From contig NC_083526.1 in the NCBI RefSeq assembly GCF_032362555.1, positions 5,910,001 to 5,974,000 on the forward strand: a stretch of DNA of 64,000 nucleotides. Direction: 5' to 3'. The stretch's first letter is position 1, and every line of letters begins with the position of its first letter. The position numbers and the translations under genes were made by a program. The notes below the pieces were generated by a model. That model saw only the letters and a program-made list of their open reading frames with translations, searched no databases and was not told the origin of the DNA. The DNA is from Amyelois transitella. Its lineage: Eukaryota; Arthropoda; Insecta; Lepidoptera; Pyralidae. Shown here one piece after another: positions 182 through 46,711 of the stretch.

Positions 182-3100
182 CTGGATGACAGCAATGTCG
201 GGTTGTATGATCTTCCTATGGAACAGCTTGGGAATGTCCTGTAGGAAGATGGGGATGGCGTCAGAGCGGCCCTCAGCCACCGCTTTCCGGACGTTGGCCG
301 CCATGAACAGGGAACACGACCTGGAAATGATGAAAATTGATGATCAGTGAAGTATGTACATACATATTAAAAAGTCTCCCTATTATCTCTGCCTATGTAT
401 GCATGCGCTGATCTTGGAAAATTGTGGACGGATTTTGTTACTATTTGTAATGCTTTGTTTTATTCTACCGGTCGCTAGTTTGGGAAAAAGATGAGTAAGT
501 TGTAAGTGCCGTGTGGTTCCCGGCACCAATACAAAAAAGAACAGGACCACTCCATCTCTTTCCCATGGATGTCGTAAAAGGCGACTAAGGGATAGGCTTA
601 AAAACTTGGGTTTCTTCTTTTAGGCGATGGGCTAGCAACCTGTCACTATTTATCTCAATTCTATCATTAAGCCAAATAGCTGAACGTGGCCATTCAGTTT
701 TTTCAAGACTGTTGGCTCTGTCTACCCCGCAAGGGATATAGCGGTGACCATATGTATGTATGTATGTATGTGTAAGTAAAAAGTATACAAATATACTTTT
801 AATCACATCTTCATGCCTTTCGGGGTCAGCGGGAACAGTTCGAAAGAACGAAAAGGCCACGTTCAGTTGTATAGCCTAATGGTAGGATTGAGATTTAAAT
901 AGTGAAGCTGACAAATATATTCATATTATCTTTTTAATTTTAATCACATAAGTAGTGTAAAACTTGCAGTGTGACTGGGAATGTTGGAGTAGGTAGACCT
1001 AGACGAATTATCAAATCGGGGACATTCTAGGAAAAGGTCAGGTCAAGAGTACCCGAAACCAACGAGCTTGCATGAAGAGTATGCAGGGATCGTGGCTAGT
1101 GGAAAGATGTAGTCTCTGCTAACCCCTCTGGAAAAGAGGCGTTATTATATGTATGTATGAATCTCTCCTCTCCCAGTCCTTTGTGGCGAGTTTCGGGCTC
1201 TGGGTCAGCTTTGACCGACTTAAGGCGGGACCTGTTCAAGGCTAGGCCCTCTATTGACTTGGACCGACTTAAGGCGGGACCTGTTCAAGGCTAGGCCCTC
1301 TTATTGACTTGGACCGACTTAAGGCGGGACCTGTTCAAGGCTAGGCCCTCTATTGACTTGGACCGACTTAAGGCGGGACCTGTTCAAGGCTAGGCCCTCT
1401 TATTGACTTGGACCGACTTAAGGCGAGACCTGTGCAAGGCTAGGCCCTCTATTGACTTGGACTGACTTAAGGCGGGACCTGTTCAAGGCTAGGCCCTCTA
1501 TTGACTTGGACCGACTTAAGGCGGGACCTGTTCAAGGCTAGGCCCTCTTATTGACTTGGACCGACTTAAGGCGGGACCTGTTCAAGGCTAGGCCCTCTAT
1601 TGACTTGGACCGACTTAAGGCGGGACCTGTTCAAGGATAGGCCCTCTTATTGACTTGGACCGACTTAAGGCGGGACCTGTTCAAGGCTAGGCCCTCTATT
1701 GACTTGGACCGACTTAAGGCGGGACCTGTTCAAGGCTAGGCCCTCTATTGACTTGGACTGACTTAAGGCGGGACCTGTTCAAGGCTAGGCCCTCTATTGA
1801 CTTGGACTGACTTAAGGCGGGACCTGTTCAAGGCTAGGCCCTCTATTGACTTGGACCGACTTAAGGCGGGACCTGTTCACGGCTAGGCACTCTATTGACT
1901 TGGACCGACTTAAGGCGGGACCTGCTTAAGGTTAGGTCAAGGTTGTTTGGATGGCGTTAAGAGGTTGACGGGCGTGTCTGAATTATTCAGACATCTCTAA
2001 ATAACATAATGTTTATATAATCAAGAGTCTTAGAGCGTTTTCTTATACGATATGCCAGTTATGTGTCAAATGATAAGATTGTATTACTGTGATGATAAGC
2101 TGATTTTGCAACTGTCACTAAACTGATTATGTGTAAAATGTAAAAATTATCTAAAAACGACATAATGTAGACGGACTAAATTCTTTTTTGCAAAGCTCGG
2201 AGAAAAATAGTACGAGTATGAGGGAAATGCCGTACATAATAATGCATCAAAAGTTGGCAACATTTTTAAAAGTTACAGCTTATAAATAAATATGCTAATA
2301 GAAAAGAATAAGTTATTAATAATCAAAGCTAGTTTACTTTGTCAACATATTTTAAACTGATTATTGATACACAATGATTTTGTAAAATATATTTAAAACT
2401 CTCGTTATTTAAGTCTTTTCGAAATGATATTTCAATCAATTCAATTTATTAATATAAACATTATTACATTGCCTTGTAATGCAAGTAATACTAAAATGAC
2501 TATCCCTTAAGTAAAAAAGTCGTGACTTTATGGTTGTAAGTTTGTATTAAAATTAAAACTATAATATAATTAAACCTATATAGATACATCGGCGACTAAA
2601 ACGGTACTAGATGATTATTAAACATGCAAGACTAAGCGTTCACCTTCACAATGAATACAAAATTACGTGTTGTTACCTCTATTGACATAGTTTATTCAGT
2701 TTGCTTTGAAACGTTTAGAATATTGTGAAGGTCCCACATCGTTATCATCCATTAGTAGTTAAACATTCAGCGGTGGAACTAGATACGTTGTATTTAGATC
2801 TTGATCAAGGGCGGGTGTTCCTTTCGGCGCCCCTACTACGCTTTGGCAGATGTTAATTTATTATTTACTTGTTTTTACTGTATGTTTTTCCGCGTAAATG
2901 CTGTGCGGTTACGGGAACTGTAGAATCTAACCACTCCATATCTTTCCCATGGACGTCGCAAGAGGCGACTAAGGGATAGCTTTATAAACTTGGGATTCAT
3001 CTTGTAGGCGATGGGCTAGCAATCTGCCATTATTTGAATCTCAATTCCACCATAAAGCCATACAGCTGACCGTGGCTTTTCTGTCTTTTCAAAACTGGCA

Positions 3101-6100
3101 GAGGATATAGGACACTATATGTATGTATGTAATAAGACCATTCCACATTACTTTACATATCCGAAACCATAATGAATGTGGATGAAGCGACAATGCAGAG
3201 ATCATGGCAAGTGGATATATGTAGTCTTTGTCTACCTCTCTGCCTACCTACCCTATGGGAAAGACGCGTGAATTTATGTTTATTTATTTATTTTTTTAAA
3301 CTTCATTGCACAAGATACAAATGTATAGCACAATTGGCGGACTTAATGCTAGAAGCATTATCTACCAGTCAACGTTTATATGTATGTATTCATTCTATTC
3401 TTTTTCCATATAACTTAAAATATTTTAAGCCTATTTTGCTTAAAAAAACAAACTATGGAAAGATGGCTCTGTTCTGCTCCAGGAAGAGGCATGATTTGTG
3501 TATTAATTATTTTATATTATTGGTTAATAATTAAATTAAAATCCGGTTTAAAAAGTTTAAAAAAAGGTTTTTATTTTAGCGTTCATCTAAGGGGCTTCAA
3601 ATTGATAGTTGCCCAAGATTTTTTTATGGTAGATAGGTATGCCTCATACAACTTGTAAAGTCGTGTGCATACGTTTATCTCATTGCTTTTGCTGGCGGTA
3701 TTTTTCATTTAGAATGGTATTGTGAATTGAGGAAAACGGACTAGAAAGAATCTGTTCTCTAGACTGTTAAAGTGTCCATCCTTCTTTCATAATTTATGTG
3801 ATGTGCATGTATAAGTATGAGTATAGTATGTATGAGTTACGACCATTTCGACTTGCTACAGCACGCCTTTGTTAGTTTTAAGGATTTGTTATTGTTATAT
3901 TTGTTTTGATGCCGTGTGGTTCCCGGCACCAGTACAAAAAAGACTAGGACCACTCCATCTCTTTCCTATGGATGTCGTAAAAAGCGACTAAGGGATAGGC
4001 TTACAAACTTGGGATTCTTTTTTTAGGCGATGGGCTAGAAACCTGTCACTATTTGAATCTCAATTCTATCATTAAGCCAAATAGCTGAGCGTGGCCTATC
4101 AGTCTTTTCAAGGCTGTTGGCTTTGTCTACCCCGCATGGTATATAGACGTGACCATATATATGTATGTATATTTGTTTGTGTTTGTAGCATTGTTGGTTG
4201 CATAATCCGTATGTATTTAAATATGAGCGAACAAATATGAGATGTGACAGTCATATTTGAATACCACTATTGAAATGTCACTATACATACATACATACAT
4301 AAACTCACGCCTCTTTCCCGGAGGGGTAGGCAGAGACTACCTCTTTCCACTTGCCACGATCCCTGCATACTTCCTTTGCTTCATCCACATTCATAACTCT
4401 CTTCATGCAAGCTCGGCGGTTTCGGGCACTTTTGACCTTTTGACTTTTGAAATGTCACTATTTGAATCTCAAATCTATCAATGAGCCAAAGAACGTTGCT
4501 TGTAGTGGGTAATTTATCAAAAATACACAAGAATAAGGCTAAGAAGTTTCACGGGGAATAACATAAAAATAACTTTACATCTTATCAGCATTAAATTATC
4601 ATTACTTAATAAGCTAACTACGGAAAATTATCACAAATCATTGAACTATCATGAATCAATAAAACATTAATTTATAATTAATCATTATAACAAAATTTCA
4701 CACAGTCATTAAACATTATTAATTATGTCTTATTGTTTATTTTTTCATTTTCAAATGAGTAGCGGAGATAAGACGGCAGTCGCTTCACGTAATTATCTGA
4801 CTTTTTCATTATTTTATATAATAATAGTATTATAACCATCATATAATAACCATGATCCAATATGAGTTTAATTCATCAAATTCATCTATTCTCTCACGGG
4901 TCTACTGGAAGAGATTTCAATTGAAATAAGTAGCACCTTTGTACTCGAATTACTGTATAAAATGCTACTGTTATATAATTTTGTGTACCTACATAAATCT
5001 ATACATAAAATAAAACAATAAAAATATTTTGTCTGAACATTTAGTATTTTTGACTGAAATGGATAGAGGGACACTTTGAATGAATAATAGAAAACAAATT
5101 TTTTTTTTGTCTGTCTGTCTGTATGTGTAATCACGCTTATCACCGAAAGTACTGAACCGATTTACTTAAAACTTTCACAAATTGCTTTGTTTTAACTCAG
5201 AACAAAACATTTAAAGTTTGTTTCATCAAAATCGGTTCACTAAAAAAAAGTTATCGTCATTTGAATGAACTCAAGGCATGAGTTTGAAATTGAAAAATTG
5301 AAATTTAAGTTTACACGGAAGAATTTGAAATTTAGAAATTTACGCGGACGAAGTCGCGGGCAACAGCTAGAAAATAAATAAAAGTAAGGATATTATAACC
5401 GGGACTAACGCCAGGAGGAAGAAGAATAATCACAGACCGCATAACGACCGCAGTTTCTATAAAGAGGAAAAATTAAGACAGAAAATGTGTGAGTATGATT
5501 CTTGTTCTCCGTAGCTAGGCTACTCTATGCTCGACGTGGCGCCTGGTCAAGTGTTGGGTCTGATGACCTTTTAGCGGACTTTGCGCTTGAGATAATGCTT
5601 ACATAAATAGAATCATATGGATTTAACTTTATTGGCGACGTAATGGTGAAATCCTTAGAGAAAAAAAGAGATGAAAAAAAAATCGATACTCTTGCGAACT
5701 CGCTGAAATCATAGTTGATTTGGGGGCAGGGGTGTATTTACCCTAGGGCCAGAAGGGTTATAGCCCGGGGCGGCAGGCCGCGAGGGGCGGCCCAGGGCTA
5801 GGGCTTTGGTTTGGAAGTTTGAAAAAATAAAAAAAATATTTTCAGACTTAAGCCTAGAACGCCCCTGAGCCACCTTTCCACATGTTGATTTAATGTCTGA
5901 AGAAATTTGAAATTCAATTAAAGTATGAAAGCCGCCCCTTGTCTTGTGCGTGGATATCATGTCTGGAGAAATTCGAAATTAATTGAAGTATGCAAGCCGC
6001 CCCTTGTTCTTTCCTGAACCGGTTGAACCGTCTATTTTTTTCCGCCTCGGTTTTTTTATTTTATGTCTGAAGCAAGTCTGAAGCAAAAAAAATAATTTTA

Positions 6101-9100
6101 GTATTTAGCCTAAGTCGCCTTGCGCAAGTTAATTTCTAGAAGTTCTAAAAGCAAGTTAATTTCTAGAAGTTCTAAAAAGGGCAGCACCTCTTACTTATCA
6201 TTTGCAACATATGAAAAAATTATTAAAATTATGGCTGACAAAGTTACCGAAACAATAATTGAGCAACTACAAAAAGCCAAATACTTTTCTTTTAGTGTTG
6301 ATTCTACTCCGGACATAACCCATGAAGATCAACTTTCTTTAATTGTGCGATTTGTTCAAGATAATGCAGAACCAGTTGAACGTTTCCTTTGCTTTCTGCC
6401 AAATACTGGTCACAAAGCAGAAGACATGTTGCAAGCAATTTTGAAGACTTTTGACAAACTAAATATCGATATTGCCAATTGTAGAGGTCAGTCTTATGAT
6501 AATGCAAGCAACATGTCGGGGCAGTATAACGGCCTGCAGGCAAAGATTAAAGAAAAATGCCAGTATGCAACATATATACCTTGCGCCGCACATTCCTTAA
6601 ATTTGATCGGATCCTCAGCAGCTGAGTGTTGCCCAGAAGCTACAAAGTTTTTTGGAGTACTGCAAAATCTGTACGTATTTTTTACAGGATCAACGGAACG
6701 TACAAAAATATTGCAAACATTTTTAACGGAACCTGAAAATGCAACCGTTAAAAGTTTGTCACATACGCGGTGGTCGGCAAGAGATGATGCTTGCTCGAGC
6801 CTGAATAAAAATTGGGAACAAATAATAATTAAAGCTCTGGAAACAATAAAAAGTAACTCTTCGCAACAAAAAGCCTTAATCAAAAATGAAGCTACAGGTT
6901 TATTGGCTCAACTGAATTCCTTAGAAACAGCGATATTATCGGAATTCTGGGGATCAGTTCTAAAACAATTTAATACCGTTTCTAAAGTTTTGCAAGGTGT
7001 GGACACAAACGTTGAGGTAGTCTCCAACCTTTACGATTCCCTGATTACTTTTGTGAAAAATCAACGCGAATTATTCGATGCATTTGAAAAAGCTGGAAAA
7101 GAAAAGTGTACTGAAGATTACAAAGATAGCCGGAAAAGGATAACAAAAAGAAAAAAACGAGACGATGAGCAACGCGAAGGAGAAGTAATTTTACAAGGAC
7201 GGGACTATTTCAAAGTGAATACTTTTTTGCCAATATGCGACCAATTGTTGGGCGAGTTAAGGAGGCGTAAAACATCCTATGACGCTGTAACCGCAAAATT
7301 TGCATTTCTATCCAATTTAATTACACTATCTGAGGCGGAAATTAAATTGAACGCATTATCACTCCAAAAGTCTTATCCTACTGATCTTGCGGATGATTTA
7401 AAGGATAAATGCATACTATTAAAGAATTTTTTGCCGTCTCAGGGACAAGAAACTGAAACAAGTTTACGCGAACTAAACTTATTAATTAATAAAAAGGATC
7501 TGAAAGTGGCGTTTCCTTACATTGAAATTGCGTTGCGCATATTTCTTTGTACTGCAGTAACGAATTGTAGTGCAGAACGCTCATTTTCGGTACTCAAACG
7601 GTTAAAAAACTATTTAAGATCGCGTCTTATCGAAGAACGGCTTAATAATTTGGCAATTTTGAACATCGAAGCCGATTTAACAAATAAAATTGATTATGAC
7701 GATGTAATAAACGAATTTGTCAAAAATTTTGTCCACAGAAAAAAAATGTAAAATATCAAATCGATAACTTTTTTTTTGTTTTCTTTCATTCCTTGATGGG
7801 ACGGAAAGCTGCAGGAGCCCGGAGCGCGCAATCTTAAAATACGCCCCTGTTTGGGGGAGTACACATAGCGCTTCAAACTGATAGAGTAACTACCTTGAAA
7901 ACAGATCAGAAACGTTATCAGAAGACCACATGGTTGGTCCTGTTGAAATTCATCCTCTACGTGAGAAAGAACGCACTACTAACTACCGTCTACTATTTGC
8001 GATATTACTTAGTAACCTAACCCAGCACATTTACTTATATTTTATTTTTTCTTCATAATTATTATTACAGTGAAAGGCGACTAAATGACAGGTTATAAAC
8101 TTGGGATTACACTATTTGAATCTCAATTCCATCATGAAGCCATACAGCTTCAGCTTCAGTCTTCGAGACTGTTGGCTCTGTCTACCCCGCATGGGGTATA
8201 GACATAACTAAATATGTATTATTGTACTCTCTACATACTTATCAGGAACACGAATGAAGAATGCAAGACTAGAGGTAAAGCACGGTCTATTCTGTACAAA
8301 GCGAAACCTAACGTCACAGTCCAGTCTCCCTCGTGGCATCTCCCTACTCCAGCTAGTCCATTTAAGGATTTCCTCCCATTTTTTAAAACCAACGGCCTCT
8401 GTGGCGCAGCGGTAGTACGCTTGTCTGTGACACCGGGGGTCCCGGGTTCGAATCCCGGCCGGGGCATGATGAGAAAAGAACTTTTTGTGATTGGCCTGGG
8501 TCTTGGATGTTTATCTATATAAGTATTTATTATAAAATATAGTATCGTTGAGTTAGTATCTCGTAACACAAGTCTCGAACTAACTTCGAGGCTGACTCAA
8601 TCTGTGTAATTTGTCCCGTATATAAAAAAAAACCTGAATATGTCCTTGCACTCTGGAGCGGCATAGGCGGCTTCCTTCTCCGTATGCATGTGGACTACTT
8701 TTATATCCCGGAGAGACTTGGCTTTCCCGACCGCCGTCATGGCGTCCAGGAGCGGCGCTGGTGTCGCCGCGGCGCCCTGGGAGAATACCGTTTGACCTGG
8801 AAAAGAATTGTTAAGTGGCAATGTAATACAAAAAAAACTCTTTAAAATAATGAGGGTAGAATGTGCCTTGTGGTACTGGACACTTCAGAATAGGACTATT
8901 GGCATAGATGTCGTAAAAGGCGAGTGTGTTTTCCGGCACTTAAATATATTAGGAGCACTCCCTCCCATACCCACGGAAGTCGTAAATGGCCACTAAAGGA
9001 ATAGACTTATACATAACCAGCATTTAATATGTTCCAATATGGATTACGTTTCCCAGCAAAAGTAGCGCAGGTCAGACGGGTATCGCTTAGTGTAAATAAA

Positions 9101-12808: not shown

Positions 12809-13243
12809 TTTGAATGATAATAAATTCTAATTTATTTTGGTAAAAGTTGAGACTTTATGGACAAATTACACTTAATGACTACGAAAGTTGATCAAGCACT
12901 ATTAATTCTTCAAATGTTCATCACACACATTAAACCCTTATATTTATAAAATTTAATATAAATATGTAAAAATTTTAGTAAACAATACACCAGTCACGCC
13001 CACCGCTAGAGACAAACTATTTTCTTTTGACATCAAACGTCAAACCAGCAGACGTCATCATTCGTTTCGTCCCCCCCCCCCCCTCTCCTTCTTTCCTTCT
13101 CCGCCATGCATCAAACAAGTCAACAACGGCGTCATCGTCATCATCTCTCAGCTCAGCGTAGTACCTAGCGACCCACTAGCTAGTAGTCGGTAGATATTAT
13201 GTATACTGAATAATTAAATAATACAAGGAATTTAATACTAGCA
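12809..13243. other. Presumed 5' flank of the CoA-transferase gene
   Basis: Upstream (minus-strand sense) of the CoA-transferase ATG. It holds a run of 13 C at 13071-13083 next to a CT-rich stretch. No defined promoter element is recognised. Confidence 0.4.
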
Positions 13244-13730
13244 CGGCTGCCCCATTTCAAAACCTAGTAAGTCTTCAATAAAGGTAAATTTCGTTTTTTA
13301 GCCTAATGCGATAACCTAGTAAGGCTCAATATATTGCAAAAACACCTGTATCGATAGCACGCTTCAATAAAAAGTTTCAAGGTGTCTCAAACCTAGTAAG
13401 AGCATCAACTTTATGCGATTAACCACTTCAAAACATAGTAAGTCGCAAAACCATTCCAAAAACTTAGTAAGTGGACAGACTTACTAGTTTATTGAAATGG
13501 TTAAATATACATACTAGGTTCTGAAATGGCCAATAGGGACAAGAATTATTAATAATTAATTAATTAGTAAGACATAAAAACTTGTGTTACTAGAATAATA
13601 AAGAGGCTTTTTACTAAGAATGAACTTCGTCAATATTTTTGTTTCTAAAATATCTATTCTCTGTTCGCTACTTTCGACCCGACCTCTTCTCTCCCCCGCT
13701 GCCGGCAGGCGCCATATTATTTTTAATTCT

Positions 13731-13999
13731 TAATCTCTTATAATAACACTTTGGACGGCACCAAACGGGCCAAAAAGCTGCCACAGCACACTCTCCTCGG
13801 TATCAGCTCCAATGTTGTATACAAAGATACACCAGCCGGAACCACCCAACGCATAACCTTGGATCAGGGGATCTGCTAATGGAGAAAACCTTTGAAGACC
13901 TTTGTTGATGGCCAAAAGAGCCTTGCCTGCAGGTCCTACGAAGCGTCGGGCAGCTGTTGGAGCCAAATATGTAGCTAATGGAGCTAAAGCCTTGTTTTG
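13731..13999 (-). pseudogene. ELAV/Hu-type RNA-binding protein fragment captured in a TIR element
   Basis: The minus frame reads [11 protein letters not shown], then [20 protein letters not shown], then [19 protein letters not shown] and [18 protein letters not shown], followed by a stop. This is the hinge and the start of RRM3 of ELAV-family proteins (elav, fne, Rbp9 in flies); RNP2 is IFVYNI. RRM1, RRM2 and the rest of RRM3, including RNP1, are absent, so it cannot be a functional ELAV protein. After VQSV the reading has lost one residue relative to the expected V-K-[IV]-I-R-D and stops. No intron interrupts it. It lies head-to-head with the LINE endonuclease piece inside the same TIRs. Confidence 0.85.
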
Positions 14000-14973
14000 C
14001 TTGCGTACTTGGTTACGAACCGGTAAGCGATCGCATAATCTCTATGAAACTTAAAGCTCTACCTGTCAACTTGAACATCGTCCAAATATATGCCCCTACT
14101 AGCCGATCTACAGAGCAAGATATTGAGAGGTTCTATACTCAGTTGCAGATTACCATTGAAAAAATACCCAACAGAGAGCTACTTATTATTTTGGGTGATT
14201 TTAATGCAAAAATTGGTGCTAACGCCCGACAACACAGTGACTCAGTAGGGAATTTTGGACTTGGTATGAGAAATGAGAGAGGTGGAAATTTAAGCAGTTC
14301 GCAGATGAAAATAACCTGGTAGTGGCCAACAATCTATTCCCGCACCATCCTCGTAGATTGTATACTTGGACATCGCCTACTGGACATCGCAATCAGATAG
14401 ACTACATCCTTATCCAATCGCGTTGGCGCACATCCGTCCTCAATGCCCGGTGCCTGCTGCGGCTCGGATCATGAACTTTTGATCATGAAAATGCGATTAA
14501 AACTCAAATATGCCAGAACTCCTTGTAAACAAAAAAGGATTGAAGTCACAGATATAGAGAAATTCACTTTCACCATCGAGAATAAGTGGACGGAATGGGT
14601 AGAAACAAAACACGGTACGCCAAACCCAAACGTCATGTGGGAAAAGGCCAAACAGCTTATCCAGCAGGCAGCAACAGAGTCTAAAACGCAATCAAAGGCC
14701 CACAAGCGGCAACACTGGATGACCGAAGGTACTCTTGCTCTTGTTGAAGAGAGACGTCGGAAGAAAGCTCAGGGAGCAGACATGAGGACTATTAACAAAC
14801 TGTCTGCTGAAGTCCAAGCAGCATGTAGACGAGACCACAACAACTACCTTCATGCCATCTGTCACGAAATCGAGTCTCATGCTGGAAGACACGAATCGAA
14901 AGACATGTACCCCAAAATTCGGGTTATCACTAAAACCTTACCATCTAAAACCTGGGCTGTTACTAGGTTTTGA
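13990..14973 (+). pseudogene. RTE-type LINE endonuclease fragment, frameshifted
   Basis: It begins abruptly at [14 protein letters not shown] and continues LNIVQIYAPTS and LLIILGDFNAKIGA, the hallmark of the apurinic endonuclease domain of RTE-like LINEs (also annotated as craniofacial development protein 2-like). A frameshift near 14290 moves it to a frame with FADENNLVVANNLF and NQIDYILIQSRW. A second near 14450 moves it to CGSDHELLIMKMR and the linker before the reverse transcriptase. It ends near 14935 where element-end sequence resumes. There is no reverse transcriptase domain. Non-functional cargo. Confidence 0.85.
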
Positions 14974-15514
14974 TATAGTTTTTATGGTCTAGAATGTCAT
15001 TCTTGTTTTTGTCTCAAGATGTTTTTTTTTATAAAACATGTAATATAAAACTTTAAAAAGAAAAACGCTTATACTATGAATGGTATGATACCTCTCTTTG
15101 TCCTGCATATTAATTTCTGGTAAGATACTTAGTAGTTCACAACGGCTAACACAAAACATGTTCCTATAAAATTTTGTCGAAAATACTTACTAGGTTTTGA
15201 AATGGGGCAGCCGAGCAGATTTGAGCCTGTCTAGCGAGTTGTATGTGGCACAACGAAACCGCGGCAAATCTCGAAATCATTTTATTTCTAACTTCTAACT
15301 CTAAATGTAGATCAAAATATAAATTTTATGTAGGTAGTCTTGACTAGTAAAATATGTCACGAAAAAGGATTCCGTAGTATATTTAATGCAAATGCTAAAT
15401 GATACGAGTAATAAAAATTTGAATTTCATTTTAAATTTGCCTTGTGTTTAGTTGCGCTCGGACTCAGTTCACTTTTATTCTCTCGTCCACATTTCTATTC
15501 TAAGTTGTGAAGTT

Positions 15515-28239: not shown

Positions 28240-31200
28240 TTAACCAGCTATGCCCGCAATCGCTTCGGAGGCGAAATATTTTACGTCCACATCTGGATCC
28301 ACATTGAGTTTCTCCAAAACAGGTTTCACTTGAGGCTGGATCACGGCCGGGTCTAGGAAAGGCGCCATTTTCTGCAACGTCTTGGCCACGTTGAATCTTA
28401 CGTTGGCAACATTGTCATCGGCCATAGACAAAACGGTTGGTAGCAAAACTCTAGTGGTCACATCTTTGCCGCACACTTCTGATAGAACATTTATGCAGAA
28501 TAAATAAGTCATGCGGTGTAAATAGTTCTGTTCACGCGACATGGCCAGTACTTTAGGAATAACGTTGGTTTCAGCCCATTGGGATCCGTACTGCTCGACC
28601 AACTTCTTCAAATTGAGCGTTGCAGCTTCACGGATTGCGTAAACGTGATCGATGAGCCAAGACATGCACAATCCTGTCAGTTTCTCGTCAAAGAATTCCT
28701 GTCCAAGTTGTCCGGCTAATAGAGGCATATGTTCGATGATAGCTAAGCGTACACGCCATTTTGTGTCTTCAGCTAGTTCGACGATCGCTGGCAAGAGGGA
28801 TTGGACTAATTGTTGTATTCCGATGACTTCGTTGACACATTCCAGGTTTGAAATTATATTCAGTCTCACTTCTGGGCATTCGTCTTTCAACTGTGTGAGG
28901 AATAATGGCAATAAATGCTCAATAGTGTTCTGCCGGCCTACGATAGGACTTAGGCCCATGATGACTGAAGCGAGGGCAGATTTGACGTGTTGGTTGGGAT
29001 CGCAGACTAAATCCTTGATTTGCGGGAGGATCATTGTCATTATAATGTGCTCTTGGTGCGCCTTGTCCAGATTCTTGCAGAAGTCTTTCACCTGAAGAGT
29101 AAACAGGACATATTAATGATATAGAAGAAGAATGTGCTTAAAGAGTTCGATAAATCTCATTTCGAGAATGATTTTTTAATAGAATTTTGAGATAATTTCT
29201 AATTTTCGAATGGTGTCGTTTGGTTTCCGACTCTTTAGAAATAGTACCTCTCCACGTGCCCATAGATGTCGTTAAAGGCGATTAAGGGAAAATTGCATCA
29301 TCTAGTGTAGCATGTACCCGGGATTACCGCTATGAGGTTTATTGGTATATTTATTATGTGCAGTGTAGTTTCTGGCACTTTAGAATAGAACCACTCACAT
29401 ATCTTTCTCATGGATGTCGTAAAAGGCAACTAAGTGACAGGCCTATAAACTTGGGATTCCTCTTATAGGCGATGGGCCATCAAACTGTCACTATTTGAAT
29501 TCCATCATGGAGCCATACAGCTGAACGTGGCCTTTCATTCTTTACGAAACTGTTGACTGTAACCCTGCAAGAGATATTATATGTTTATAGTTTGAAGACT
29601 TACTTTCCCGGCGGCGGCGGCCCTCACTTCCGCCTCTGTGTCCTTCAACAGAGCCTGGAAGATCTGCGCCAGATCAGTGCGAGTCAGTTCGGGGCCCACG
29701 GCTTGTTGGAGCTCCACAAACCTGTTATTAAATACATATTTTTAGTGCCTTAGTATTAAGAAAGATTAAAATCATTCTATATAAGAGGATAATACATTAT
29801 ATGAATATAGAACACAGAAAGTGGTGAAATAAAATATGTGTTGTCAGCATGTCTTATATGCTTGGGATTATTCTTTAAGGCGATAGTGTTATTTATATTT
29901 AGTTAGCAGTAAAATATCTACTCACTTGTCGACCACCATGTATTGGACCCTCCAGGACGTGTCCCCAGCTACAGTGGTGACAAGATTAGAAGCAACCTTC
30001 TCCATCCCCCTTCATCATGACTCTACAGAATCAATTGTCTTATCTATATTTAGTTACTTCTTCTTAGTCGTGTCACTCTTGACAGAGTGGTCGTGGTCAT
30101 CATGTAGTGTTGGAGGCGGGCGCCAATGTGCGCCTTACGATGTCACGCCATTTCTCCCTGCTGGAAGTCATCCCGCTGCACTCGTTAAGTGAACCGCCAA
30201 TCATAGACTTTATTCGGTCGGTCCATCGCATGGGTGACCTCCCGCGCGGTATTTAGTTAACATAGCAGTAAATTCACTCACTTGTCGACCACCATGTATC
30301 GGACTCTCCATGATGTGTCCCCAGCGCTGGCCCTCACGGTGGGCATCACGAGCTGCTCCATGTCCTCGCGAGGCAGCAGGGCGGCCACGGCAGCGCAGGC
30401 CTCCGCTGCTAGCAGGCGCACCGAGTCTTGTTCATCCTGGAATGGACAATATTAAAAACTATGTCAAATAATCACTTCCCTTGATGTTGTAAACGCATTT
30501 GCATAACAAACACATAAATAATCCGGTGTCTATTAGAGTAAAGAAAAAAGGTTCCCCTAAAAGGTTGTGCAGTTCAGATGGGAGTCACTTGATGAGCTAT
30601 CTTTAGAGAGGATGCCTTAGGAACAAAAGACAAGTAGTATGATTAGCAAGTACCCGGTTCACCGAGCTTTGCTCGGTCTACCAGAGATCGCTGATATAGT
30701 TTCTTAAAACGCAGTTTTGAAAATGTTTATACATCTTGGGAACCGAGCTTTTCTCGAACCTAGGACCTTGATAAATCGATTCCTTGAGCCGAAAAGCCCC
30801 TAATCTGTAACTTTCATGAAAATCGTTGGAGCCGTTTCCGAGATCCTGATTATATATATACAAGAATTGTTCGTTTAAATATATTAGATATTCGTTACAA
30901 GTATTACCTGTGCCAAATTAACGAACATTGGTATCAGATCGCTCTTCACATACTCCACTTCGACGACCCTCGCGAACTCTCCCAGCTTGTAAGCGGCCGC
31001 GCGGCGCACCATAGGCGTGTCGTCTTGACACAGCGAGCAGAAATGTTGGCGCAGTTCAGCCTTGACCGGCGCCGATACGCGGGGGTAGCAGACGCTAGAA
31101 TCGTAGAAGAGAAGTTAGTATTCAACCTGTTGATAATCTGTCATTCCAATGGCTTTTGGTATAGTGCTAACTTAAAACTGTCTCGGTCAGGTTAAGATGG

Positions 31201-42738: not shown

Positions 42739-45700
42739 TTACAACATCTGACCAATTCCTAATTTATTTCTAAGATACTGATATCTAACTTTTGTTAACG
42801 CTTTCGTAAATATATCAGCACTTTGTTCAGAACTACATATATAATTCAAATCAATAATTTTTGCTTCATATTTTTCTTTAACAAATTTATATTTTATATC
42901 TATGTGTTTGCAACGTTTATGATAATTCTCATTTTTAATGACAGAAATTGCACTTTGATTATCTATGTTAAGAACAAAACAATCCTGCCTATACTCATTT
43001 ATATCTAACAAAAGCCTCTTTAACCAAATAATTTCTTTCGTTGCACAACACGCAGCCATAAATTCCGCTTCTGTCGTTGACAGTGCTACGCTTTGTTGAC
43101 GCTGACTCGCCCATGTTACAGCAGCACCATTTTTGATGAAAACATATCCCGTCATAGACTTTCTTGTTTCTGTATCATTTGCAAAATCAGCATCGCTGTA
43201 ACATTCTACTACATTTTGTTTACTTGGTTTAAAACATAGACCATATGTCTTAGTCTCTTTTAAATATTTAAATATCTTTTTCACAGCATTCCAGTGACTA
43301 TGGTCATAACAATCAAGAAATCGACTTAATAAACTCACACCAAACATGATATCAGGTCGACTAACTATAGCCAAATGCATCAAAGACCCAACTGCTTCTC
43401 TATATGGTATTTTCTTATCTACATCTGATGTATTTTTTTCTAACTTCGTGTTTGGGTCTACTGGTATACTGTTTCCATTGGCTTCACTCATATTAAACTT
43501 GCTAAGTAATTTTTCAACATATTTGGATTGATGTAAGAATATGTAGTCTTCTCCTCTGTCTATTTGAAGTCCAACAAAATTCTTAACTTCACATACTTTT
43601 ACTATAAAGTTCTCCTTTAAATCATGGATAACTTTTTCTAATATTATTTCCTCTTTACAAATTATTAATCCGTCATCTACATATAATAATAAATATACTT
43701 CAGTCCCATCAAAGTTGCCAGTGTAAACACATTTATCAGAATGACTATTAGTGAAACCGAACTTCTTTAATACTGAATCAAATTTATGATTCCAGCACCT
43801 AGGTGCTTGTTTTAGGCCATATAAAGACCTTTTAAGTTTACATACAACTCCTTCAGGTACGTCTAAACCTTCAGGTGGGGACATATATATATTTTCAGTT
43901 ATATCACCATAGAGAAAAGCTGTTTTGATGTCAAACTGTATCATTTTTAGATTATCTTGACATACTTTAGAAAGCAACACTCTAACGGAATCATATCTGA
44001 CAGTTGGTGAAAACGTTTCCTTGTAATCTATGTCATATCTTTGTGAACATCCCATAGCCCATAATCTTGATTTGTAGATTGGTGGAGAAGTATTATCTTT
44101 TATTCTAAAAACCCACTTACAACCAATAATTTTTGCACCATCAGGTTTCTTCACCAACTCCCATGTTTCATTAACTTCGTGTGCTTTCAGTTCTTCTTTA
44201 ATAGAATTTTCCCATTTTTCTTTTTCTTTTTCTGAAGATGACACTGCTTCTCGGTATGTTCTTGGTGTGTCATCTTGTTGGTCATCACCTTGACAAATGT
44301 AAGTATTAGATTCATGTTGTTTAATATTTTTACTTTTAGATCTAGTTGTTATATTACTAATCTCAGTTGTATTTATTTCTCTTTCAGGTACATACATGGA
44401 ATCATCATTTGAAAAGAACGACTCATCATTATCATCAGATGAAGTTTCTGATAACTTACTTATTTCATTACTTTCTAAAGTTTCTGTCGGTATACTATCA
44501 TTATTTTCTTTAACTGTAGTACTATTTTCACTTTCAGACAGCGGAACCGTAATGAATTTTCTTTGTATCGAGTTTTCCATAAATACAACATCTCTACTTA
44601 TAAGTATCTTTCTTGCTTTAGTATCTAATAATCTATATCCTTTAGTAGTATCTGAATAACCAACAAAAATCATTTTACTTGCCTTGCTATCCAGTTTCTT
44701 ACGTTTAGAGTCAGGTACATGTACCATTACTTCACATCCAAAAATTCTCATGTGTTTCAAATTAGGCTTCTTCCCGGACCATTTTTCTTCAGGGGTAACG
44801 TATGAAATAGATCTTGTTGGACATCGATTGGTAATGTATGCTGCTGCTGCTACTGCTTCTGCCCAATAGTATTTCTGTAAATTAGCATTCAGTAACATGC
44901 AACGAGCTCTCTCTATTAAAGTACGGTTCATACGTTCCGCTAACCCATTTTGCTGAGGGGTATATGGATTAGAAGTTTCATGTATTATGCCTGAATTTTG
45001 AATGTAATCTTGGAATTCATTACTTAGATACTCTCTCCCATTATCTGTTCTCATTCTTTTTATTTTAAGATCAAGCTGATTTTCTACCAATACTTTGAAA
45101 TTCTTGAACTTACTAAAGACTTCAGACTTGCTATTAAGAAAATAAACAAATACTTTCCTGGTAAAGTCGTCCACAAAGGTAACAAAGTATTGAGCTCCGC
45201 CAACTGACTTCACTTCTATAGGCCCACATAGATCGGAATGTATTAGCTCCAGCGGCTTTGTTGCTCGGGAGCCTACTTTAGGAAACGGCAGCCTGGACTG
45301 TTTTCCTTCTTGACAGTATTCACACACCTTATTCAAATTATTCTTACTCATTGTTATGCCTTCTGCACACTCGGTGAGTTTATTCAAATCAGAAAAATTA
45401 AGATGTGCCATCCTTTGATGCCATAAGTAACTGTCATCATGACCAATACATTTATAAGCTGATGGGCTATTCACATTAAACCTGTACATGTTATTAATTA
45501 ACTCACAAGTTACTACTTCTTCTTTGCAATTATTGAGTATTTTACAGCCATTGTTATCAAACTGTACGGAACACCCCTTCTTTATAAGTTGGCTTACGGA
45601 GAGAAGATTACTTGCTAACTCTGGTACGTATAACACATTTGTTACTTGTATAGTTTGCCTCTTCCCTTTGCTATTTGTAACAGACAGATTAATATTTCCA

Positions 45701-46668
45701 CAACTTTTCACGGTGAGCAATTTATCATTAGCGATACGGATGCTTGTAATCGGGGGTGACGATTCAGCATACAGCCAGTCCTGCCTCATGGTAAGATGCA
45801 TGGATGCTCCGGAATCGACAAACCAACTATTACCGTCGTTTTTCTTTGTTGTAGCTGAGAATACTGCGACATATCCAGTTTCTTTTTCTGTCTCCTTACC
45901 AAAATCCTTCGTTTTAGTTCTGCAATTCTTACTTATATGTCCATATTTATTGCATTTAAAACAACGTGGACCTTTGCCAACTTTCCATGTATTTCCCGAT
46001 ATTTTTGGCTTGTTTTTATTATTCTTGCCAGCATATAATGCTATAGACTCGGAGCTCTTTATCTCCTGCAAGAGCTTAGTCTTTACGGAATCTGCTGTAA
46101 TGGGCACACCGGAACTTTCGAGAGCCATAATCATGGGTTTATATTGCTCGGGCAAACCAGCTAGAAGTAATGTGCCCAACCACTCATCATTGACCTCAAA
46201 CGAAATATTTCGTAGTTTATGTGCCGTCGTCATTATTTTGTTAATATAGTCTTCTATATTCTGACAATTATCCAAACTCGTGGTTATCAAATCTTTCAGC
46301 AGCCCTACACGCCGTGTCAACCCATTATCGTCAAACGCTTTTTGTAAGTTTGTCCACACCTCTTTTGCCGTTTTTGCCTCTTGAATGTGTATGTAATTTA
46401 CCGAGTCAACTAATAATATAATTTTTGCTTTTGCTTTCAGGTCGAGCTTCGGATCTACATTTTCATTCTCGATACAACACCAAAGATCTTCATGTTGCAA
46501 ATATGTTTGCACGGCAAATCTCCATGTATTATAGTTGTCTCGTCCAACTAATTTTTCAATAAGAGTCATAGCATTTGAAGCCATTTTGTGAAACAACATC
46601 CACAAAAAATTTGACAACGGCGGCTGTAATATGTCGTATCTCTTTAGAGACCGGCGACCGAATTTCAC
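42739..46668 (-). CDS. copia Gag-Pol polyprotein, 1,309 codons, uninterrupted
   Basis: A single reading frame. Order and approximate residues: Gag of the UBN2 type (~30-220); CCHC zinc knuckle CFKCNKYGHISKNC (~234-247); aspartic protease WFVDSGASMH (~280); integrase with WHQRMAHLN zinc region (~414) and catalytic D in HSDLCGP (~477), D in MRTDNGREY (~541) and E in NGLAERMNR (~576); reverse transcriptase from VNETWELV (~836) with FDIKTAFLYGD and LLYVDDGLI (~993); RNase H with CYSDADFAND (~1156) and STTEAEFMAACCATKEIIWL. The Pro-IN-RT-RNase H order defines Ty1/copia. The true start may be the ATG at residue 29 (MASNAMTLIEKLVG), which matches the usual Gag start. No stop or frameshift, and all catalytic motifs are present, so it could be autonomous. 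Confidence 0.96.
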   Translation of the reverse strand: MKFGRRSLKRYDILQPPLSNFLWMLFHKMASNAMTLIEKLVGRDNYNTWRFAVQTYLQHEDLWCCIENENVDPKLDLKAKAKIILLVDSVNYIHIQEAKTAKEVWTNLQKAFDDNGLTRRVGLLKDLITTSLDNCQNIEDYINKIMTTAHKLRNISFEVNDEWLGTLLLAGLPEQYKPMIMALESSGVPITADSVKTKLLQEIKSSESIALYAGKNNKNKPKISGNTWKVGKGPRCFKCNKYGHISKNCRTKTKDFGKETEKETGYVAVFSATTKKNDGNSWFVDSGASMHLTMRQDWLYAESSPPITSIRIANDKLLTVKSCGNINLSVTNSKGKRQTIQVTNVLYVPELASNLLSVSQLIKKGCSVQFDNNGCKILNNCKEEVVTCELINNMYRFNVNSPSAYKCIGHDDSYLWHQRMAHLNFSDLNKLTECAEGITMSKNNLNKVCEYCQEGKQSRLPFPKVGSRATKPLELIHSDLCGPIEVKSVGGAQYFVTFVDDFTRKVFVYFLNSKSEVFSKFKNFKVLVENQLDLKIKRMRTDNGREYLSNEFQDYIQNSGIIHETSNPYTPQQNGLAERMNRTLIERARCMLLNANLQKYYWAEAVAAAAYITNRCPTRSISYVTPEEKWSGKKPNLKHMRIFGCEVMVHVPDSKRKKLDSKASKMIFVGYSDTTKGYRLLDTKARKILISRDVVFMENSIQRKFITVPLSESENSTTVKENNDSIPTETLESNEISKLSETSSDDNDESFFSNDDSMYVPEREINTTEISNITTRSKSKNIKQHESNTYICQGDDQQDDTPRTYREAVSSSEKEKEKWENSIKEELKAHEVNETWELVKKPDGAKIIGCKWVFRIKDNTSPPIYKSRLWAMGCSQRYDIDYKETFSPTVRYDSVRVLLSKVCQDNLKMIQFDIKTAFLYGDITENIYMSPPEGLDVPEGVVCKLKRSLYGLKQAPRCWNHKFDSVLKKFGFTNSHSDKCVYTGNFDGTEVYLLLYVDDGLIICKEEIILEKVIHDLKENFIVKVCEVKNFVGLQIDRGEDYIFLHQSKYVEKLLSKFNMSEANGNSIPVDPNTKLEKNTSDVDKKIPYREAVGSLMHLAIVSRPDIMFGVSLLSRFLDCYDHSHWNAVKKIFKYLKETKTYGLCFKPSKQNVVECYSDADFANDTETRKSMTGYVFIKNGAAVTWASQRQQSVALSTTEAEFMAACCATKEIIWLKRLLLDINEYRQDCFVLNIDNQSAISVIKNENYHKRCKHIDIKYKFVKEKYEAKIIDLNYICSSEQSADIFTKALTKVRYQYLRNKLGIGQML

Positions 46669-46711
46669 TTTATTTATTTTACTGAATAATTATAAATAAA
46701 ATCAGATTAAG

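What the first reader, a model, noticed from the sequence alone, without database searches (positions are those of the whole stretch)
13244..15213. TIR transposon carrying an ELAV-type gene fragment and a LINE endonuclease fragment
Seen: exact 29-bp inverted ends, a possible AGCA duplication, about eight subterminal AACCTAGTAAG-type motifs, and inside them an intron-free fragment of the ELAV hinge/RRM3 start on one strand plus a frameshifted RTE endonuclease on the other, with no transposase. Known: gene-capturing elements (Pack-MULE/Pack-TIR) are well described in plants and little described in insects. Inference: this is an insect Pack-type element that captured pieces of a neuronal RNA-binding protein gene and of a LINE. 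If the family is multicopy, it could spread ELAV-like sequence or antisense RNA.
Basis: partly seen in the sequence, partly recalled or inferred. Interest (0 to 1): 0.8.

Follow-up and report, generated by a model that had tools for sequence, protein, structure and literature searches.

The report
Insect transposon carrying captured gene pieces
A cut-and-paste transposon in what looks like a butterfly or moth genome has lost its own transposase gene, holds instead a piece of a gene for a neuronal-type RNA-binding protein and a piece of another mobile element, and has been placed on several chromosomes, which makes it an insect example of a gene-shuffling process best known from plants.

Summary
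Window 13244-15213 is a 1970-bp element with exact inverted ends, an AGCA duplication and nine subterminal motifs (shuffles: mean 0.045). The host genome holds seven elements with the same perfect ends (14 of 14 ends), each with its own 4-bp duplication (7 of 7). Two of the seven are one insertion duplicated with its flanks, so six insertions are independent. Five elements carry the same cargo: ELAV and LINE pieces. The ELAV piece (272 bp) is 97.5% identical to one intact, uninterrupted ELAV-like gene on another contig. The LINE piece (958 bp) matches 15 genomic places over its whole length at 96-97%. Junctions 1 and 3 are present in 5 of 5 cargo copies, junction 2 in 4 of 5, so the cargo was acquired once and then transposed. 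Relatives with the same ends carry a broken transposase of the DUF7869 kind, whose predicted fold has a DDE/integrase-like core. One site is found empty elsewhere. Best reading: a multicopy Pack-TIR. Tan et al. 2021 report none in their insect reference genomes, four multicopy cases in 100 animal genomes, and Ssk-FB4 in flies. Capture by template switching is inferred; an antisense RNA effect is untested.

The parts
13240..13243 (.). target-site duplication AGCA, left copy
   Evidence: 7 of 7 elements have a matching 4-bp pair
13244..13272 (+). terminal inverted repeat, left, 29 nt exact
13244..13730 (+). retained left end of the carrier transposon (98.2% to positions 1-484 of the L009 element), with seven AACCTAGTAAG-type motifs, the first inside the TIR
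13731..13732 (.). junction 1 (carrier to ELAV): no overlap, about 2 filler bases; present in 5 of 5 cargo copies
13733..14004 (-). captured ELAV-like piece: hinge and start of RRM3, 97.5% to C13:8898863-8899137
14001..14004 (.). junction 2 (ELAV to LINE): 4-nt overlap TTGC beside one mismatch; present in 4 of 5 cargo copies, deleted in L013
14001..14958 (+). captured LINE endonuclease piece, broken in this copy; 15 genomic places over its whole length at 96-97%
14956..14958 (.). junction 3 (LINE to carrier): 3-nt overlap GCT; present in 5 of 5 cargo copies
14956..15213 (+). retained right end of the carrier transposon, two AACCTAGTAAG-type motifs, one of them inside the TIR
15185..15213 (-). 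terminal inverted repeat, right, 29 nt exact
15214..15217 (.). target-site duplication AGCA, right copy

Best explanation
The element is a non-autonomous, multicopy Pack-TIR of a small, young family of cut-and-paste transposons that make 4-bp target duplications and whose transposase is of the DUF7869 (PF25273) kind. SHOWN: seven elements with identical ends and own 4-bp duplications; five with one chimeric cargo (ELAV piece joined to LINE piece) and shared junctions; a cargo that lies where the L009 relative has its transposase gene; donors of both pieces; one insertion site found empty elsewhere. INFERRED: in one carrier copy a break (after excision, or at a stalled replication fork) was repaired by copying first a stretch of an ELAV-like gene from another chromosome and then a LINE copy, with short-overlap template switches, before closing on the carrier's right end. 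The new element kept both ends and the subterminal motifs (probable transposase-binding sites), so transposase supplied in trans moved it to the five sites now seen. The ELAV piece is too short to make a working RRM and lies antisense to the former transposase gene.
Confidence: 0.88

Rival explanations
1. The LINE had already inserted next to or into an ELAV copy, and a single switch captured both pieces from one chimeric locus that is absent from this assembly.
For: The two pieces abut with only a 4-nt overlap, and this LINE is common in the genome (15 places over the whole stretch, 26 with shorter matches, 93-99%).
Against: No place outside the elements joins the two pieces in the scored list (40 of 47 candidates scored, so lower bounds). 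The LINE piece begins and ends inside LINE coding sequence and shows no LINE 3' end.
Confidence: 0.2
2. The cargo was gained by transposition-independent gap filling at a fragile site inside a resident copy, as Tan et al. propose for most single-copy animal Pack-TIRs, and only later mobilised.
For: Short junction overlaps fit any template-switch model; movement after capture is shown by distinct duplications.
Against: The cargo replaces 81% of the L009-type carrier (positions 485-3711 of 3977), whereas Tan et al. report small gaps (median 4.6% of the TE) skewed to the inside of the TE, and mostly nearby donors, for that class. Here the ELAV donor is on C13 and the cargo copies lie on C22 (two), C10, C32 and C6.
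Confidence: 0.2
3. The ELAV piece is kept because it is functional, as antisense or small RNA acting on the ELAV-like gene, or as a short peptide.
For: The ELAV coding strand is opposite to the transposase gene direction, so read-through from the left end would be antisense. The ELAV frame is free of stops in the four copies with the full piece.
Against: Only a hinge and part of one RRM remain. With so few changes an open frame is expected without selection. No RNA data are available here.
Confidence: 0.05
4. Chance inverted repeats or an assembly artefact around an ordinary ELAV pseudogene.
For: None found.
Against: Seven elements, perfect ends, own duplications, an empty site.
Confidence: 0.01

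Closest known systems
Multicopy Pack-TIRs of animals, e.g. Pack-hAT-N8_XT with a CAPSL piece in the western clawed frog (Tan et al. 2021, PMC8277862)
   Same: Captured host fragment between TIRs, distinct duplications at dispersed copies, distant donor, short junction overlaps.
   Different: Carrier is hAT there and a DUF7869-kind element with 4-bp duplications here; here the cargo is double (gene plus LINE); host is probably lepidopteran.
Ssk-FB4 of Drosophila melanogaster (Tan et al. 2021)
   Same: Insect, multicopy, dispersed by transposition.
   Different: Nearly whole gene captured, 9-10-bp duplications, TIRs of about 700 bp, polymorphic, signs of protein function; here a fragment only, 29-nt ends, no sign of function.
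Pack-MULEs / Pack-TYPE elements of plants (PMC8903248, passages seen)
   Same: Non-autonomous TIR elements with gene fragments between their ends.
   Different: Transposase kind and duplication length differ (MULE duplications of about 9 bp are recalled); the family here is tiny, five cargo copies.
Gene-fragment-carrying Helitrons of Lepidoptera (PMC3789558 and PMC6544945, search listing only)
   Same: Mobile elements that carry host gene fragments in Lepidoptera.
   Different: Helitrons lack TIRs and target duplications (recalled); this element has both.
Sola2-type transposons (Repbase)
   Same: 4-bp AT-rich target duplications, as described for Sola2 in passages of PMC3627910.
   Different: Homology of the transposases was not tested: no Sola2 protein was at hand.

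Membership tests
Pack-TIR (animal) | two matching terminal inverted repeats and a target duplication | tested here: met
Pack-TIR (animal) | captured non-TE host sequence with an identifiable parental copy | tested here: met
   ELAV donor C13:8898863-8899137, 97.5%, in an intact ELAV-like frame
Pack-TIR (animal) | carrier TE identified outside the captured copy | tested here: met
   L009 and L010/L011 elements: same ends, transposase gene (broken) instead of the cargo
Multicopy Pack-TIR | copies with one chimeric structure and distinct duplications | tested here: met
   five cargo copies: AGCA, TGCT, TAGT, AAAA, TTAT; junctions 1 and 3 in 5 of 5, junction 2 in 4 of 5; shared changes
DDE/D transposase | RNase H-like core with conserved acidic residues | tested here: met
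DUF7869 family (PF25273) | Pfam score above the gathering cut-off | tested here: inconclusive
   local broken piece 21.0 bits against cut-off 26; its 64% homologue P0001 36.4 bits, above cut-off
Sola2 | 4-bp target duplications | tested here: met
   definition taken from passages of PMC3627910
Sola2 | Sola2-type transposase | not tested
Pack-MULE | target duplications of about 9 bp (recalled) | tested here: not met
   4-bp duplications in 7 of 7
Helitron | no TIRs and no target duplication (recalled) | tested here: not met

The most novel reading that the evidence does not exclude
The family still moves, and read-through from its left end makes antisense ELAV RNA (siRNA or piRNA) that damps the host's ELAV-like gene, so a transposon has turned a neuronal gene fragment into a heritable regulator; DUF7869-kind transposons, of which this genome holds near-identical copies with long open frames, would then be a habitual gene-capturing class in Lepidoptera.
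Probability: 0.05. Interest if true: 0.75.

Novelty: new member of a known kind. Interest (0 to 1): 0.45.

Why it matters
Tan et al. 2021 found no Pack-TIR in their insect reference genomes and only four multicopy cases in 100 animal genomes. A multicopy case with a known gene donor, carrier relatives, clean shared junctions and an empty site gives a well-resolved example of gene-fragment capture and spread in an insect, and ties it to a transposase kind (DUF7869) whose name a full-text search of the held library did not find. The known junctions, donor and retained ends make the capture step open to test.

Tried and rejected
RNA-mediated origin of the ELAV piece: not needed, because the donor stretch is itself one open frame. 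A virus as carrier: a 21-nt end pattern had 0 exact matches in viral contigs, which says little. A named superfamily: left open; literature searches gave no Sola2 sequence. Foldseek against PDB gave no match at E<=0.001; only the VIA-align second look supports the integrase/transposase core. Ends of ten related loci: the scan kept only pairs with a duplication of 4 bp or more, so it cannot test the duplication length independently; by eye, plausible pairs in 5 of 10 (L049, L050, L051, L054, L055); L048 and L051 also listed longer inverted repeats taken to be other repeats; L047/L048 needed a comparison of copies: ends CTGCCC with TATA on both sides in the two copies read, either a duplication or part of the element; L052, L053 and L056 gave nothing convincing. 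ELAV paralogues in the host genome: search not answered and not repeated. A second empty site, for L012: not completed.

Statements about what is not in print rest in an open-access library; others (20 of 44 papers listed; 15 of 128 listed) were seen in part.

Full report
OBSERVATION. The window is G000:C22:5910001-5974000 of a 327-Mb genome in 33 contigs. The best named relatives of the donor ELAV protein are lepidopteran (Pararge aegeria 91%, then Papilio xuthus, Pieris rapae, Bombyx), so the host is probably a butterfly or moth; the species is not known. The finding's coordinates are exact. A 29-nt end occurs once on each strand, at 13244 and 15185-15213, and nowhere else in the window with up to 7 mismatches. 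AGCA flanks both sides. AACCTAGTAAG with up to one mismatch occurs 9 times in the element and once in the rest of the window; 200 dinucleotide shuffles of the element give a mean of 0.045, maximum 2.

FAMILY. A 28-nt end pattern with up to three mismatches allowed finds 14 ends in the genome, all perfect, seven in each orientation, and no match to the reversed control. They form seven elements: window 1970 bp, L016 1973, L017 1970, L012 4744, L013 1361, L009 3977 and L010/L011 13,102 bp; the 4-bp duplications are AGCA, TGCT, TAGT, AAAA, TTAT, AATA and TATT. L009 and L010/L011 have the same flanks in opposite orientation, so they are one insertion present twice in contig C32, and the family shows six independent insertions. 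The L009 flanks joined with one AATA match three other places over 300 of 300 bp at 96-98%, and 3 of 3 hold the exact uninterrupted 23-nt site: an empty site that fixes the ends and the duplication.

CARGO. Compared with the L009 element the window element keeps 1-487 and 1713-1970, and the stretch with the transposase gene is replaced. Element positions 490-761 match C13:8898863-8899137 at 97.5% including a 3-nt gap. Positions 758-1715 match 15 genomic places over the whole stretch at 96-97%, 26 places if shorter matches at 93-99% are counted, and three more at 68% (counts are lower bounds, 40 of 47 candidates scored). The donor ELAV-like gene is one open frame of 373 codons with RRM matches, so 'intron-free' carries no information on RNA origin. 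The LINE piece in a genomic copy is an open endonuclease frame. Junction 1 has no overlap and about two extra bases; junction 2 shares TTGC beside one mismatch; junction 3 shares GCT. A total of 7 or more overlapping bases over three junctions has a chance probability near 0.014 in a simple model: suggestive, not proof. Junctions 1 and 3 are present in 5 of 5 cargo copies and junction 2 in 4 of 5; L013 lost it with an internal deletion. The four copies with the full cargo share two substitutions and the 3-nt deletion in ELAV against the donor, and nine substitutions in the LINE piece against 4 of 4 LINE copies compared; the nine may partly reflect an unsampled donor copy. So the capture happened once, and the chimera then moved at least four times. 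L012 was later hit by another LINE.

HOW IT WORKS. Shown: ends, duplications, donors, shared junctions, empty site. Inferred: a break in a carrier copy, template switches onto the ELAV-like gene and then a LINE copy, closure at the right end, and later movement with transposase supplied in trans. The replaced part is 81% of the L009-type carrier, which fits abortive repair after excision, or the FoSTeST model of Tan et al., better than their transposition-independent gap filling (small, internal gaps and mostly nearby donors). The ELAV strand is opposite to the transposase gene, so read-through would be antisense; there is no RNA evidence. The ELAV frame is stop-free in the four copies with the full piece, but too short for a working domain and too young for that to mean constraint.

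LITERATURE. Tan et al. 2021 (PMC8277862; abstract, Results parts 1-2 of 4 and Discussion read) scanned 100 animal genomes and report 370 Pack-TIRs, none in insects, four multicopy cases in frog and alligator, and Ssk-FB4 in fly populations. 'Pack-TIR' occurs in that one paper of the held library, 'DUF7869' in none. Seen as passages only: plant Pack-TYPE papers, an arthropod MULE survey, a Sola2 description and a Trichoplusia ni TE-expression paper. Helitron papers on gene fragments in Lepidoptera were seen as listings.

VERDICT. It is a clean new member of a known kind that is rarely recorded in insects.

Noticed in passing
window 6114-7751 (+): Open frame of 545 aa with DUF4371 and hAT dimerisation domains: a hAT transposase.
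   Followed up: partly
window 42739-46689 (-): Uninterrupted 1316-aa Copia-type gag-pol frame, so probably a young copy.
   Followed up: partly
window 28240-29112 (-): Coding stretch with PPP2R1A-like HEAT repeats, probably the PP2A scaffold subunit.
   Followed up: no
L047, L048 and L037-L044: A related DUF7869-kind group at eight places on several contigs, 99.7-100% identical over the pieces compared, most with frames of about 600-811 codons; ends CTGCCC with TATA on both sides in the two copies read: looks recently active.
   Followed up: partly
L009 and L010/L011 (contig C32): The same insertion lies twice in C32 in opposite orientation about 0.93 Mb apart. C32 holds 28 of 85 transposase matches on about 4% of the genome and may be a sex chromosome (guess).
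   Followed up: no
P0079: A protein named putative otopetrin in Operophtera brumata matches the transposase query over 68% of its length: probably a mis-joined gene model or a fusion.
   Followed up: no
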